From Marivita sp. (GTDB taxonomy: Bacteria; Pseudomonadota; Alphaproteobacteria; Rhodobacterales; Rhodobacteraceae): a DNA stretch of 64,000 bases. The notes beneath the pieces were generated by a model. The model was not told where the DNA came from. It did not search any database and was given only the letters and a program-made list of their open reading frames with translations. The position numbers and the translations under genes were made by a program. The stretch lies in contig NZ_JAIPUT010000013.1 in the NCBI RefSeq assembly GCF_020055635.1, forward strand, positions 1-64,000. The letters run 5' to 3'. Of the stretch, positions 565 to 14,198 are shown piece after piece (position 1 is the stretch's first letter; the number at the start of each line of letters is the position of its first letter).

Positions 565-765
565 TCATGCCCGTGCTGAAATCCGGGCGATGTCACCACG
601 GCAGATTCCGATATCGTCAAGCTCGCGATCCGAAAGGCGGGACAGGGCGTTGCGCGTCACACGCTCGTCGTTCCAGTTTTTCAATGCCACAAGGGCACGA
701 CCAAGGGCATCGCCAAGAACGAAGGTCGGGGCGTTGTGCGGGCGGGTGGTGTCGATAGCAGCCAT
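565..765 (-). CDS. DUF1127 small protein
   Basis: A 66-residue protein with the typical DUF1127 C-terminal pattern: a basic amphipathic helix (LVALKNWNDERVTRNALSRL), then LSDRELDDIGICRGDI. Members of this family are small alphaproteobacterial proteins, several of them linked to RNA binding or to phosphate and stress metabolism. The exact role here is unknown. The start is the ATG at 765, because AAAGGAG lies 7 nt before it; the ORF track begins 25 codons too early. It is divergent from ruvC, with a perfect 8-bp inverted repeat between them, and has its own terminator. Confidence 0.8.
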   Translation of the reverse strand: MAAIDTTRPHNAPTFVLGDALGRALVALKNWNDERVTRNALSRLSDRELDDIGICRGDIARISARA

Positions 766-852
766 TGGATAAGCTCCTTTTGATGAATGACGGAATGTCG
801 AGAGGCTCTGACCGGCATCTAGTCGCCCGCGCTTTGCCAAGCAAGTGAGCGC

Positions 853-3988: not shown

Positions 3989-4013
3989 GGAACCGTTGCG
4001 CCCTGATGGCGTT
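3989..4013 (+). promoter_or_regulatory. EcfG-type (general stress) promoter
   Basis: An exact GGAAC-N16-CGTT match, the consensus of alphaproteobacterial EcfG sigma factors. It points at the PLDc_N gene at 4115 with a leader of about 95 nt. Confidence 0.75.
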
Positions 4014-4114: not shown

Positions 4115-4300
4115 ATGCTCGAGATCAGTGGAATCGGCGGGATCATCATTCTGATCCTGAATGTCTGGGCCATCGTATCGATTGTCGGCTCTGCTGCATC
4201 GACCGGAGGGAAAGTGCTTTGGGTGCTTTTGGTGCTGTTGCTGCCGTTGATCGGCTTCTTGATCTGGCTGGTGGCCGGGCCGCGTTCGGTGCGGGCCTGA
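4115..4300 (+). CDS. PLDc_N domain small membrane protein
   Basis: 61 residues. A short N-terminus (MLEISGIGG) and two transmembrane helices (IIILILNVWAIVSIV and VLWVLLVLLLPLIGFLIWLVAG) surround the WVLLVLLLPLIGFLIW core typical of the PLDc_N (phospholipase D nuclease N-terminal) family. These proteins stand alone in bacterial membranes and have no catalytic residues. The start is chosen by AAGGAG 8 nt upstream. An exact EcfG-type promoter lies upstream, so I predict it is a general stress response target. Confidence 0.8.
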   Translation: MLEISGIGGIIILILNVWAIVSIVGSAASTGGKVLWVLLVLLLPLIGFLIWLVAGPRSVRA

Positions 4301-4332: not shown

Positions 4333-4357
4333 GGAACCATGTCCGGGCGGCGGCGTT
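4333..4357 (+). promoter_or_regulatory. EcfG-type promoter of a candidate small RNA
   Basis: An exact GGAAC-N16-CGTT. The predicted transcription start is near 4363, and a strong terminator lies at 4462-4493, so the transcript would end before the phospholipase D gene unless it reads through. Confidence 0.75.
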
Positions 4358-4362
4358 GATAT

Positions 4363-4493
4363 CATGAAGCCAGCGTTTGATGCTTTCGCTGCCTCTTCCG
4401 GGTCGGCCAATCCCCAAGTGTAGGCGGGCCCAGAAGCACCCCTACTGTCCCTCGGGTGCCTGCCCCCGTCTGAAATATGGCGGGGGCTTTTTT
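4363..4493 (+). ncRNA. candidate general-stress small RNA (~130 nt)
   Basis: The segment is bounded by an exact EcfG-type promoter (4333-4357) and a rho-independent terminator. Just before the terminator is a second hairpin, GCACCC (4436-4441) / GGGTGC (4454-4459), with a 12-nt pyrimidine-rich loop containing GTCCCTC. C-rich loops are frequent target-pairing sites of alphaproteobacterial sRNAs. A 19-codon ORF (4364-4423, MKPAFDAFAASSGSANPQV) begins almost at the predicted 5' end, so a leaderless small protein or a dual-function RNA is an alternative. No homology claim is made. Confidence 0.55.
4462..4493 (+). terminator. strong rho-independent terminator
   Basis: GCCCCCG / CGGGGGC (4462-4468 with 4481-4487) is followed by TTTTTT. 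It ends the candidate sRNA upstream of the phospholipase D gene. Confidence 0.85.
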
Positions 4494-7250: not shown

Positions 7251-7276
7251 AACGCGCGCCGCATGCGCAAGGTTCC
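7251..7276 (-). promoter_or_regulatory. EcfG-type promoter (N17) of the AI-2E transporter
   Basis: Exact GGAAC and CGTT elements with a 17-nt spacer on the minus strand. The -10 element sits 9-12 bp from the start codon, predicting a leaderless or nearly leaderless mRNA. Confidence 0.65.
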
Positions 7277-9267: not shown

Positions 9268-9292
9268 AACGTCCGCGGCGGCGCTGGGTTCC
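9268..9292 (-). promoter_or_regulatory. EcfG-type promoter of the DUF883-holin operon
   Basis: An exact GGAAC-N16-CGTT on the minus strand, predicted to start transcription near 9262 with a leader of about 30 nt that contains the AAAGGAG ribosome-binding site. Confidence 0.8.
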
Positions 9293-9698: not shown

Positions 9699-10517
9699 TC
9701 AGGCCTGAAGCGTCTCGGTGCTGGTGAAGAACATCGCCTGGCTCACCGCCGATTGCACCTGTTCTTCGGAATATGGCTTGGTGATGAGGAAGGCGGGTTC
9801 GGGGCGCTCACCGGTCAGGAGGCGCTCGGGGAAGGCGGTGATGAACACCACCGGCATATCGCCCAATTCCTCAAGTATATGGTTCACCGCGTCGATGCCC
9901 GAGGATTTGTCGGCCAGTTGGATATCGGCCAGAATCATGTCGGGCGGGTCGTGACGCGCCAGTTGGACGGCCTCGTCGCGTGTGCGGGCGACGCCGGTGA
10001 CTTTGTGGCCGCTGCCTTCGACGATGGCACGTATATCCATTGCGATGATCGCCTCGTCCTCGATCAGCATGATGTTGCCGCGGATGGACTGTGCCATTTC
10101 CTTGCGGGCGATGGCGATCAGGTCTTCGGCCTCGGCGGGCTCGACGCCGACGATCTCGGCGATGTCGGGCGTGGTGAAGCCTTCGATACTGTGCAGCAAC
10201 AGCGCCTCGCGGGTGTTGCGGGTCAGGCCCGAAAGGCGTTTCTGGGCACGCGCTTCGGGCGAGCCATCTTCGTCGGCGTCATCCACGGGTGAGCCCGACG
10301 ACACCCAAATCCGGTTGAATGCCCTGAACAGCGCCACCTTCGGCGACAGGCCGGACTGAAAGATTTCCTGATCCTCAAGCAGAGCCTCGAGCGTGGCGGC
10401 GGCGTAATGGTCGCCGCTTTGCTGGCTGCCGGTCAGTGCGCGCGCATAGCGCCGCAGGAAGGGCAGCTCTTGGGCGATTTCCGCTGACATGTCGCGCCGG
10501 ATGGTCGTTTCGGTCAT
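9699..10517 (-). CDS. phyR: PhyR, anti-anti-sigma response regulator of the general stress response
   Basis: 272 residues with the PhyR layout: a sigma-factor-like N-terminal half (about 10-140, FLRRYARALTG, SGLTRNTREALLLHSIEGFT) and a C-terminal receiver (about 147-265). The receiver has LIEDEAIIAMDI, phospho-acceptor Asp198 in MILADIQLAD, and LITKPYSEEQV. When phosphorylated, PhyR captures NepR by sigma mimicry and so frees EcfG. The start is ATG 10517 with GAGGAAG upstream; the ORF track begins 56 codons early. It is divergent from nepR-ecfG and has an exact EcfG-type promoter, which implies positive autoregulation. Confidence 0.95.
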   Translation of the reverse strand: MTETTIRRDMSAEIAQELPFLRRYARALTGSQQSGDHYAAATLEALLEDQEIFQSGLSPKVALFRAFNRIWVSSGSPVDDADEDGSPEARAQKRLSGLTRNTREALLLHSIEGFTTPDIAEIVGVEPAEAEDLIAIARKEMAQSIRGNIMLIEDEAIIAMDIRAIVEGSGHKVTGVARTRDEAVQLARHDPPDMILADIQLADKSSGIDAVNHILEELGDMPVVFITAFPERLLTGERPEPAFLITKPYSEEQVQSAVSQAMFFTSTETLQA

Positions 10518-10547
10518 GGGCTTCCTCGAAAAAAATTTCGTTTGCAG

Positions 10548-10572
10548 GGAACCAAACGCCGTCAGGCGTGTT
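10548..10572 (+). promoter_or_regulatory. EcfG-type promoter of nepR-ecfG (one mismatch)
   Basis: GGAAC-N16-TGTT on the plus strand, one mismatch in the -10 element. It overlaps the exact phyR promoter on the other strand. Confidence 0.55.
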
Positions 10573-10579
10573 AGGTTCC
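10555..10579 (-). promoter_or_regulatory. EcfG-type promoter of phyR
   Basis: An exact GGAAC-N16-CGTT on the minus strand. Its -35 element lies just past the -10 of the opposing nepR promoter, so polymerase occupancy at the two should be mutually exclusive. Confidence 0.8.
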
Positions 10580-10635
10580 ACGGTCGGGACGTAAAAAACG
10601 CGTCAGGCCCTGAATGGATCGCAGAACACAGTAAA

Positions 10636-10836
10636 ATGGCAGAAAACAGCAGGACCTCAAAGTTGAACCAGCAGATAGACGACAATCTCAGACGCGTCTA
10701 TTCGGACGCGTCAAGCGAGCCGGTTCCCGAACGGTTTACCAAGCTGCTGGAGCAACTGCGCCAGCAAGAACAGGGCGCGCGCGCCGAAGATCAGGACGAA
10801 GATCACCGGGCGGCGTCCGGGGATGACGACCATTGA
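10636..10836 (+). CDS. nepR: NepR anti-sigma factor
   Basis: 66 residues. The conserved NepR core is present: LNQQIDDNLRRVYSDASSEP then VPERFTKLLEQLRQQE, the two helices that clamp EcfG or phosphorylated PhyR. An acidic tail follows. NepR holds EcfG inactive until PhyR-P competes for it. The start is the ATG at 10636; the ORF track begins upstream inside the promoter. The stop overlaps the ecfG TTG start (TTGA), coupling anti-sigma and sigma translation. Confidence 0.93.
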   Translation: MAENSRTSKLNQQIDDNLRRVYSDASSEPVPERFTKLLEQLRQQEQGARAEDQDEDHRAASGDDDH

Positions 10837-11387
10837 CCGACACGCAAGATCCAAGAGAGGAATTGATCGAGCATCTGCCCGCGATGCGGGCCTTTGCAAT
10901 GAGCCTGACGCGCAATCCGGCGACGGCGGATGACCTTGTGCAGGACACGATCGTCAAGGCGTGGAGCAATTTCGACCGCTTTCAGCCGGGCACCAACCTG
11001 CGCGCCTGGCTGTTCACGATCCTGCGCAACACCTATTATTCCCTTTACCGCAAGCGTCGCCGCGAGGTCGAGGACCCCGAGGGGCAGATGGCGGGCGCGA
11101 TATCGGAGAAACCGGCCCATGACGGGCATCTGGTGATGACCGATTTCCGCGAGGCCTTTGCCCAGTTGAGCGACGAGCAGCGCGAAGTGCTGATCCTGGT
11201 GGGCGCTGAGGGCTTTTCCTATGAGGACGCCGCAGAGATGTGCGGATGTGCGGTGGGCACGGTCAAGAGCCGCACCAACCGCGCACGCAAGCGGTTGGCC
11301 GAGCTCATGCATCTTGACGAGGATGAGGGCCTTGAGATGACCGATGCCGCCACGCTTGCCGTGGTGCAGGGAAATCCGGCTGCATGA
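10833..11387 (+). CDS. ecfG: EcfG-type ECF sigma factor
   Basis: 184 residues. The sigma-2 region includes DLVQDTIVKAWSNFDRFQPG and LRAWLFTILRNTYYS. The sigma-4 region includes LSDEQREVLILVGAEGFSYE, DAAEMCGCAVGTVKSRTNRA and RKRLAEL. Context and sequence make it the general-stress ECF factor that recognises GGAAC-N16/17-CGTT. It starts with TTG overlapping the nepR stop, and its own stop overlaps the kinase start by 4 nt (ATGA). The N-terminus MTDTQDPREELIEHLPAMRA is typical. Confidence 0.95.
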   Translation: MTDTQDPREELIEHLPAMRAFAMSLTRNPATADDLVQDTIVKAWSNFDRFQPGTNLRAWLFTILRNTYYSLYRKRRREVEDPEGQMAGAISEKPAHDGHLVMTDFREAFAQLSDEQREVLILVGAEGFSYEDAAEMCGCAVGTVKSRTNRARKRLAELMHLDEDEGLEMTDAATLAVVQGNPAA

Positions 11388-13126
11388 GCGAGCCGCCACC
11401 GCGCAGAATGCTCAAGCCCGGTCTGGCCGTGCTTTTGGTGCTGGTTCTGAGCATCGCGATCCTGCCGCTTGGCCTGATATCGGTCTACCAGACATTGAAG
11501 GTGCTGGAGGAGCGTCGGTCATTGTCTGAAACCGCGTTGCTTGAACAGACCCAGCAGGCGGCGTCGGCGAGCCGCGAGGTGATCGGTTCCGCCGTCAGCG
11601 CGGCGGAGGCGCTGGCGCTGACGGTCTCGGCCTTCAGGGCGATTGACGGGCCTTGTGACGGGGTCATGCGGCGCATTGTCGAACAGTCACCCCATTACAT
11701 GTTCGCAGGGTTCGTGGATGAGGATTTGCAACTGGTCTGCGCGTCGCGCGGCGAAGATCGCGATCTGACGGGGCTTGATGTCATCAAGACGCAACTGACC
11801 AGCCTCGACACCGAAATCCAGATGCAGCCGCTGTCGTTTCTGGGCGGAGCGGCCTCGGTCAATGTGATGGTGCCGGTCTTCGATGACGCGCAGTTCGTGG
11901 GCAAGGTGCTGATCGCGGTGCCGATCACGGCGCTCAATGCGTCACTGACGGGGCGCGCGCCGGATGTCGATCTGGTGCTGTTCCAGTCACAGGGCGAGAT
12001 CATCGCGACACAGGATTTCAGCGATGACCGGCGCACGGTGCTGCCGATGAACACCACCCTTGGCGAATTGGCCGAACTGCCGCGCCATACGTTCCGCGAA
12101 GAAAACCGCGATGGCATGACACGTGACTTTGCCGTGGTGGCGATTGTGGACGGCAGCGTGTTCGCGCTGGGCAGTTGGGCGCCCCGCAGTCGCAGCCTGA
12201 TCCTGCCGGGGTATGAAGAGGCGCTCGCGCTGTATTTTCCCATCATCATGTGGGTGATCGCCATCGGGGTGGCCTATGTCGGCGTGCATCGTCTGGTGAT
12301 CCGCCACATAAGGCGGCTGCGGTCATGGATGCGCCTTTATGCGGCAGGGCGCGACGATCTTGAACAGGCGCGGCTGAACAATGCGCCCGAGGAACTCGAG
12401 GTCGTGGCCGAGGCGTTTCGCGCGATGACGCGGCGGCTTGACGAACAGGACCGCCGCCGCGATGAGGACTTGCAGGAAAAGACGGTTCTTCTGCGCGAAG
12501 TGCATCATCGGGTGAAGAACAATCTTCAGCTTATTTCCAGCATCATGAACATGCAGATCCGCGCCACGCGCAGTGAAGAGGCCAAGCATCTTTTGCGCCG
12601 CGTGCAGGACCGGGTGATGGCGCTGTCGGCGATACATCGCTACCTCTACATGGCGCGCAAGCTGTCGATGGTGCGCGCCGACAAGCTTTTGCAGGAGATC
12701 ATCGAGCAGTTGGTGATCGTCGGAACGCTGGACGAGACCGGGCAACAGATCAAAGTCGCAACCGAGTTCGATCCGGTCGAGGTCGATCCGGATCAGTCGG
12801 TGCCGCTGTCGCTGCTGGCGGCCGAGGCGGCGATGAATGCGGTGAAATACAGCGGCGTCGTCAAGGGTGACGATGCCTGGATCAACATTGCCCTAAAGAA
12901 TGTCGGGGAGGATGCGCTGTGCCTGAGCGTGGTGAATTCGCGCGCCCCGGCCAGCGAGGCGGAGACGGGTGATGATTCCGACGGGTCGGGCCTTGGGTCG
13001 CGCCTGATCGAGTCATTCGTGTCGCAACTGAACGGAGTGCTGGATATCAATGAACCAGAGGGGCGTTTCGAGTTGCATGTCACATTTCCGCGGGCATGGC
13101 CCGACATCCGCGCGAACGAGGACTGA
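11384..13126 (+). CDS. membrane sensor histidine kinase (HisKA_2/HWE type), PhyK-like
   Basis: 580 residues. TM1 (LAVLLVLVLSIAILPLGLISV) precedes a periplasmic sensor domain of about 230 residues, probably Cache-like. TM2 (YFPIIMWVIAIGVAYVGVH) and a HAMP-like linker follow. The dimerisation helix carries the phospho-acceptor His in REVHHRVKNNLQLISSIMN (HisKA_2 signature). The ATP-binding domain has AAEAAMNAVKYS and a GSGLGSRLIESF glycine box. Location as third gene of nepR-ecfG-kinase strongly suggests it phosphorylates PhyR. The sensed signal is unknown. Confidence 0.88.
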   Translation: MSEPPPRRMLKPGLAVLLVLVLSIAILPLGLISVYQTLKVLEERRSLSETALLEQTQQAASASREVIGSAVSAAEALALTVSAFRAIDGPCDGVMRRIVEQSPHYMFAGFVDEDLQLVCASRGEDRDLTGLDVIKTQLTSLDTEIQMQPLSFLGGAASVNVMVPVFDDAQFVGKVLIAVPITALNASLTGRAPDVDLVLFQSQGEIIATQDFSDDRRTVLPMNTTLGELAELPRHTFREENRDGMTRDFAVVAIVDGSVFALGSWAPRSRSLILPGYEEALALYFPIIMWVIAIGVAYVGVHRLVIRHIRRLRSWMRLYAAGRDDLEQARLNNAPEELEVVAEAFRAMTRRLDEQDRRRDEDLQEKTVLLREVHHRVKNNLQLISSIMNMQIRATRSEEAKHLLRRVQDRVMALSAIHRYLYMARKLSMVRADKLLQEIIEQLVIVGTLDETGQQIKVATEFDPVEVDPDQSVPLSLLAAEAAMNAVKYSGVVKGDDAWINIALKNVGEDALCLSVVNSRAPASEAETGDDSDGSGLGSRLIESFVSQLNGVLDINEPEGRFELHVTFPRAWPDIRANED

Positions 13127-13148: not shown

Positions 13149-13173
13149 GGAACCTTTCCGCCCCGGTCGCGTT
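13149..13173 (+). promoter_or_regulatory. EcfG-type promoter of the entericidin-like lipoprotein
   Basis: An exact GGAAC-N16-CGTT with a leader of about 25 nt before ATG 13204. Confidence 0.8.
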
Positions 13174-14032: not shown

Positions 14033-14057
14033 AACGCGCGCATCGCGTTCCGGTTCC
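14033..14057 (-). promoter_or_regulatory. EcfG-type promoter of the ExoD gene
   Basis: An exact GGAAC-N16-CGTT on the minus strand, immediately before the assigned start codon. Confidence 0.75.
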
Positions 14058-14173: not shown

Positions 14174-14198
14174 GGAACCAAAGCCGACAGGTCGCGTT
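14174..14198 (+). promoter_or_regulatory. EcfG-type promoter of the secreted protein gene at 14273
   Basis: An exact GGAAC-N16-CGTT with a predicted leader of about 68 nt. Confidence 0.8.

What the first reader, a model, noticed from the sequence alone, without database searches (positions are those of the whole stretch)
4333..4493. Candidate EcfG-controlled small RNA between PLDc_N and phospholipase D genes
An exact GGAAC-N16-CGTT promoter (4333-4357) is followed by no annotated gene but by a hairpin with a C-rich loop and then a strong rho-independent terminator ending at 4493. This predicts a ~130-nt stress-induced RNA. A 19-codon ORF begins at the predicted +1, so it may also encode a leaderless micropeptide. 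Known GSR sRNAs exist in other alphaproteobacteria (for example GsrN of Caulobacter), but I see no basis for calling this a homologue.
Basis: partly seen in the sequence, partly recalled or inferred. Interest (0 to 1): 0.72.

Follow-up and report, generated by a model that had tools for sequence, protein, structure and literature searches.

The report
Roseovarius stress-sigma small RNA gene
Near the general-stress-response control genes of some Roseovarius marine bacteria sits an undescribed small RNA gene with its own stress promoter, an evolutionarily conserved structure and two exposed C-rich loops, so it probably tunes messenger RNAs during stress, though no transcript has yet been measured.

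Summary
In detail: GGAAC-N16-CGTT at 4333-4357, then hairpins, then an intrinsic terminator at 4462-4493. Homologues were found at 24 other loci (Roseovarius species plus two further genera). Of the 25 loci, 23 have GGAAC-N16/17-NGTT about 30 nt upstream and 2 have near-matches, although the promoter was never part of the search model. The RNA folds into three hairpins plus terminator with strong covariation (23 of 31 pairs with double changes; 0 of 500 shuffles as high). The loops resist change: UCCC in 24/25 (hairpin 2), GUCCC in 22/25 (hairpin 3). Most copies lie near phyR-nepR-ecfG. The gene persists where no phospholipase D (PLD) gene is adjacent, and as second copies elsewhere, so it is an independent gene rather than only a PLD leader. 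The 19-codon micropeptide is rejected: start and frame are not conserved. Best reading: an EcfG-controlled trans-acting sRNA, GsrN-like in logic (stress sigma, GSR-locus position, C-rich loops) but not shown to be homologous to GsrN. No Rfam match, no robust target, no expression data. It occurs in about 22 of 85 Roseovarius genomes. The window contig is probably a foreign Roseovarius contig in a mixed assembly.

The parts
4333..4357 (+). EcfG-type promoter GGAAC-N16-CGTT
   Evidence: GGAAC-N16/17-NGTT about 30 nt upstream of 23 of 25 homologues, one-mismatch variants in the other 2; background 0.3% of positions in the same loci
4363..4493 (+). Predicted small RNA gene, about 131 nt (+1 near 4363 inferred from promoter spacing)
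   Evidence: Covariance models R1/R2; 25 homologous loci; covariation
4366..4396 (+). Hairpin 1 (CAGCG..CGCUG core), variable in sequence, covarying
   Evidence: Helices 1-2: all 8 pairs show double changes
4399..4433 (+). Hairpin 2 with exposed C-rich loop AAUCCCCAAGUGUA
   Evidence: all pairs with double changes; UCCC kept in 24/25; mean unpaired probability 0.79 against 0.39 for the whole RNA
4437..4461 (+). Hairpin 3 GCACCC/GGGUGC with loop CUACUGUCCCUC
   Evidence: GUCCC in 22/25; mean unpaired probability 0.91
4462..4493 (+). Intrinsic terminator GCCCCCGUC..GGCGGGGGC + U6
   Evidence: 9 pairs, 99.6% of cells paired in 25 sequences
4115..4300 (+). PLDc_N small membrane protein, upstream neighbour
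   Evidence: Pfam PF13396
4565..6160 (+). PLD-like (phospholipase D family) gene, downstream neighbour; no EcfG site of its own between the sRNA terminator and its start
   Evidence: Pfam PF13091/PF00614
9699..10685 (-). PhyR anti-anti-sigma response regulator (core GSR); mechanical ORF, true start probably further in
   Evidence: Pfam PhyR_sigma2, Response_reg
10833..11387 (+). EcfG sigma factor (core GSR)
   Evidence: Pfam Sigma70_r2/r4_2

Best explanation
An independent, EcfG-dependent small RNA gene of the general stress response. Under stress, PhyR frees EcfG from NepR, and EcfG-RNA polymerase transcribes a ~131-nt RNA from about 4363 to the intrinsic terminator at 4493. Two exposed loops (UCCCC and UGUCCCU, sharing a UCCC core) then pair with G-rich sites (GGGGA / AGGGACA), most likely ribosome-binding sites or leaders of several mRNAs, and change their translation or stability. 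Shown here: promoter, structure, terminator, loop conservation, linkage to the GSR locus at most loci, and independence from the PLD gene. Inferred: transcription, EcfG dependence, base-pairing in trans, direction of regulation.
For: 25 homologues with three hairpins plus terminator; 94.6% of cells paired, 23/31 pairs with double changes, covariation 0.497 against 0.204 shuffled, 0/500; also strong on an alignment not fitted to the structure (14 pairs with double changes, 0/500). Promoter, not part of the models, exact in 23/25 and near in 2, including 9 of 11 loci not used to build the models. Loops conserved while stems vary. sRNA kept without an adjacent PLD gene in L189, L191, L192, L193, L194 and G397, and as second copies next to Crp in the GSR locus (L140, L196). 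Mean pairwise identity only 58%.
Against: No RNA-seq or mutant data. Found in only about 22 of 85 Roseovarius genomes at E<=1e-4 (stricter filters; two of those hits, L185 and L186, look like chance terminators). Some terminators end in only three T (L047, L049, L057, L060). A target search with AGGGACAG before ATG gave no target shared beyond close relatives, and three homologues have a changed hairpin-3 loop.
Confidence: 0.85

Rival explanations
1. A cis-acting 5' leader/attenuator of the PLD gene only: EcfG transcripts end at 4493 or read through into PLD, and the conserved hairpins control that choice.
For: In 12 other Roseovarius loci the element sits directly upstream of PLD, PLD has no EcfG site of its own after the terminator, and Yoonia/Loktanella loci without the sRNA have an EcfG-type site upstream of PLD.
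Against: The element is kept in at least six genomes without an adjacent PLD gene and as second copies at another place, in the GSR locus.
Confidence: 0.08
2. A dual-function locus: trans-acting sRNA plus read-through leader of PLD from the same EcfG promoter (a refinement of the best explanation, not exclusive of it).
For: Shared promoter geometry and lack of another EcfG site before PLD in 12 loci.
Against: Not required by the PLD-less copies; read-through untested.
Confidence: 0.3
3. A leaderless micropeptide gene (19 codons from +1).
For: ATG at the predicted +1 in window, L046, L048, L051.
Against: No start codon near +1 in L052 and L056; no ATG in L050 and L053; elsewhere frames of widely different length and unrelated sequence. 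What is conserved there is a covarying hairpin.
Confidence: 0.02
4. Only a promoter followed by a chance terminator, with no functional RNA.
For: No expression data.
Against: Covariation, loop conservation and promoter co-conservation across 25 loci at 58% mean identity.
Confidence: 0.02

Closest known systems
GsrN (Caulobacter; PMC5869019)
   Same: EcfG/SigT-type promoter, gene near ecfG-nepR-phyR in most genomes, roughly 100-130 nt with intrinsic terminator, exposed C-rich loop; proposed pairing with G-rich mRNA sites.
   Different: No credible homologue of this RNA in a class-wide sample; two C-rich loops in the second and third hairpins with UCCC cores instead of one 5' loop with six tandem C. 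In the passages read, the paper names homologues in Caulobacteraceae and proposes others in Rhizobiales, and the word Rhodobacter does not occur. Processing, Hfq and katG untested here.
SmelA075/SmelA099 and Rhodobacter RSs0680a-type anti-Shine-Dalgarno sRNAs (PMC3927594)
   Same: Several hairpins with similar C-rich loops on variable stems; stress-induced in described cases.
   Different: No CCUCCUCCC in any of the 25 homologues; promoter is EcfG-type.

Membership tests
GsrN family | EcfG/SigT-type promoter directly upstream | tested here: met
GsrN family | Proximity to ecfG/nepR/phyR | tested here: met
   Window: about 5.2 kb to phyR, 6.3 kb to ecfG; GSR genes or their syntenic neighbours within the flanks of most homologues. 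Exceptions: the PLD-linked copies of the two genomes with two copies (L055, L195) and L191 show none in their flanks; L052 is at a contig end
GsrN family | Exposed C-rich loop in the 5' part (six tandem C in GsrN) | tested here: inconclusive
   C-rich exposed loops present, but in hairpins 2 and 3 and with 3-6 C
GsrN family | Sequence/structure homology to Caulobacteraceae gsrN | tested here: inconclusive
GsrN family | Intergenic transcription, processing to a stable 5' isoform, Hfq effect, katG target | not testable with these tools
   Needs RNA work
SmelA075/RSs0680a (CCUCCUCCC) sRNAs | CCUCCUCCC loop motif | tested here: not met
   Absent in all 25
Any Rfam 15 family | Score at or above the family gathering threshold | tested here: not met
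   sub-threshold hits far below gathering scores

The most novel reading that the evidence does not exclude
A new, lineage-specific sRNA family, the first GSR-controlled sRNA of Rhodobacterales, evolved independently of GsrN: general-stress loci of different alphaproteobacterial orders would each have acquired a C-rich-loop sRNA next to ecfG-phyR.
Probability: 0.5. Interest if true: 0.65.

Novelty: new member of a known kind. Interest (0 to 1): 0.5.

Why it matters
It gives the alphaproteobacterial general stress response a candidate post-transcriptional arm in roseobacters, where my literature searches found none described. It also makes testable whether C-rich-loop sRNAs at GSR loci are homologous across orders or arose repeatedly.

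Tried and rejected
BLASTN-type DNA search of 61 relatives gave only chance matches, because the RNA diverges too fast and the assembly's genus-mates are not Roseovarius-like here; the best of them, L002, showed no such arrangement. Rfam: nothing. Micropeptide: rejected. Weak covariance-model hits at 26-35 bits in other Rhodobacteraceae are mostly ends of coding genes with GC-rich terminators and no EcfG site. Target search AGGGACAGN{2,12}ATG in six Roseovarius genomes gave 106 matches against 31 for the reversed control, which a purine-rich Shine-Dalgarno alone could explain; orthologous hits are shared only among close relatives (a GntR-like regulator, a CvpA-like protein, a DnaQ-like exonuclease, an aldo/keto-reductase-like protein; names by eye), so no target is claimed.

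Full report
Observation. The promoter, hairpins and terminator are at the stated coordinates. GGAAC-N15-18-CGTT is enriched in this window (9 against 1.58 expected), because the window carries the GSR locus: PhyR 9699-10685(-), EcfG 10833-11387(+), and a HisKA_2/HWE histidine kinase 11384-13126(+).

Conservation. A scan of a genome collection with the PLD protein brought in Roseovarius loci. Their PLD upstream regions carry the same arrangement despite divergent sequence. A 12-sequence MAFFT alignment (A1) already showed 14 of 31 pairs with double changes, and no shuffle reached the covariation score. Model R1 then found homologues at other positions: G397, where the gene lies between a DUF1328-like gene and a PRC-barrel gene close to phyR, and a second copy in G446 next to the Crp gene of the GSR locus. 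Model R2 (14 sequences) found it in about 22 of 85 Roseovarius genomes and in one further genus, g99. The final set of 25 has 94.6% paired cells, 23 of 31 pairs with double changes, covariation 0.497 against 0.204 in shuffles and at most 0.12 in slid controls, at 58% mean identity. A5 is fitted to the model, so the unfitted A1 figures are the conservative ones.

Independent test by the promoter. The promoter was not part of either model. 23 of 25 homologues have GGAAC-N16/17-NGTT beginning 27-37 nt upstream of the model start, L158 has AGAAC-N16-CGTT and L178 a GGAAA variant. The background rate in the same loci is 0.3%. Weak hits judged false (L185, L186 and most 26-35-bit hits) lack it. A 39-bit hit with the promoter (L159) and a 38-bit one (L184) were kept.

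What is conserved inside the RNA. Stems of hairpins 1 and 2 change freely with compensation, while the loops do not: UCCC in hairpin 2 in 24/25 and GUCCC in hairpin 3 in 22/25. These motifs are predicted largely unpaired (0.79 and 0.91 against 0.39 for the whole RNA). This is the pattern expected of an RNA that pairs with other RNAs through fixed seeds (inference from known sRNA families).

Position. Most copies lie in the GSR neighbourhood. In the two genomes with two copies (G446, G806) the PLD-linked copy shows no GSR genes in its flanks, while the second copy sits beside Crp, a few kb from phyR.

Not only a PLD leader, not a peptide. In L189, L191, L192, L193 and L194 the sRNA lies by PLDc_N with no PLD ortholog found adjacent, and G397 and the second copies also lack it. 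PLD has no EcfG site between the terminator and its start in the 12 loci examined, so read-through from the sRNA promoter remains possible. The 19-codon frame is not conserved.

Comparison. GsrN-like RNAs outside Caulobacteraceae were proposed in PMC5869019 by intergenic transcription, an EcfG site and closeness to the GSR locus, with a C-rich loop in common. This element meets the promoter and position criteria and has C-rich loops; transcription could not be tested, and homology was not found (inconclusive). Its build of repeated C-rich loops on variable stems resembles SmelA075/RSs0680a, but their CCUCCUCCC motif is absent. No Rfam family fits.

Caveat on origin. The assembly holding the window contains two RuvB genes (100% and 87%), two EcfG genes (99% and 65%) and two PLD genes, at 4.9% estimated contamination. 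Its genus-mates have only 42-46% identical PLD, whereas R. halotolerans has 87%. The window contig is therefore probably a Roseovarius contig in a mixed assembly; this does not affect the finding.

Noticed in passing
window 1-64000 (G000:C78) versus G000:C25 and C147: Two RuvB, two EcfG and two PLD genes in the assembly, and the window's genes match Roseovarius far better than the assembly's own genus-mates: the contig is probably foreign (mixed assembly).
   Followed up: partly
window 3989-4013, 7251-7276, 9268-9292, 10555-10579, 13149-13173, 14033-14057, 14174-14198: A cluster of EcfG-type promoter sites around the GSR locus, near PLDc_N, the AI-2E transporter family gene, small membrane protein genes and phyR/nepR: a compact GSR regulon island.
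   Followed up: no
L100, L101, L119, L166: Weak model hits in other Rhodobacteraceae share strong hairpins with a GCCCCCACCC loop followed by a terminator and lack an EcfG site: possibly a different, unrelated sRNA family.
   Followed up: no
L050 4743-4867: A Roseovarius MAG copy with EcfG promoter but a damaged terminator stem: decay of the gene or assembly error.
   Followed up: no
window 565-840 (-): Small ORF whose C-terminal part resembles DUF1127 proteins, a class linked to stress sRNAs in Rhodobacter (from memory, not tested).
   Followed up: no
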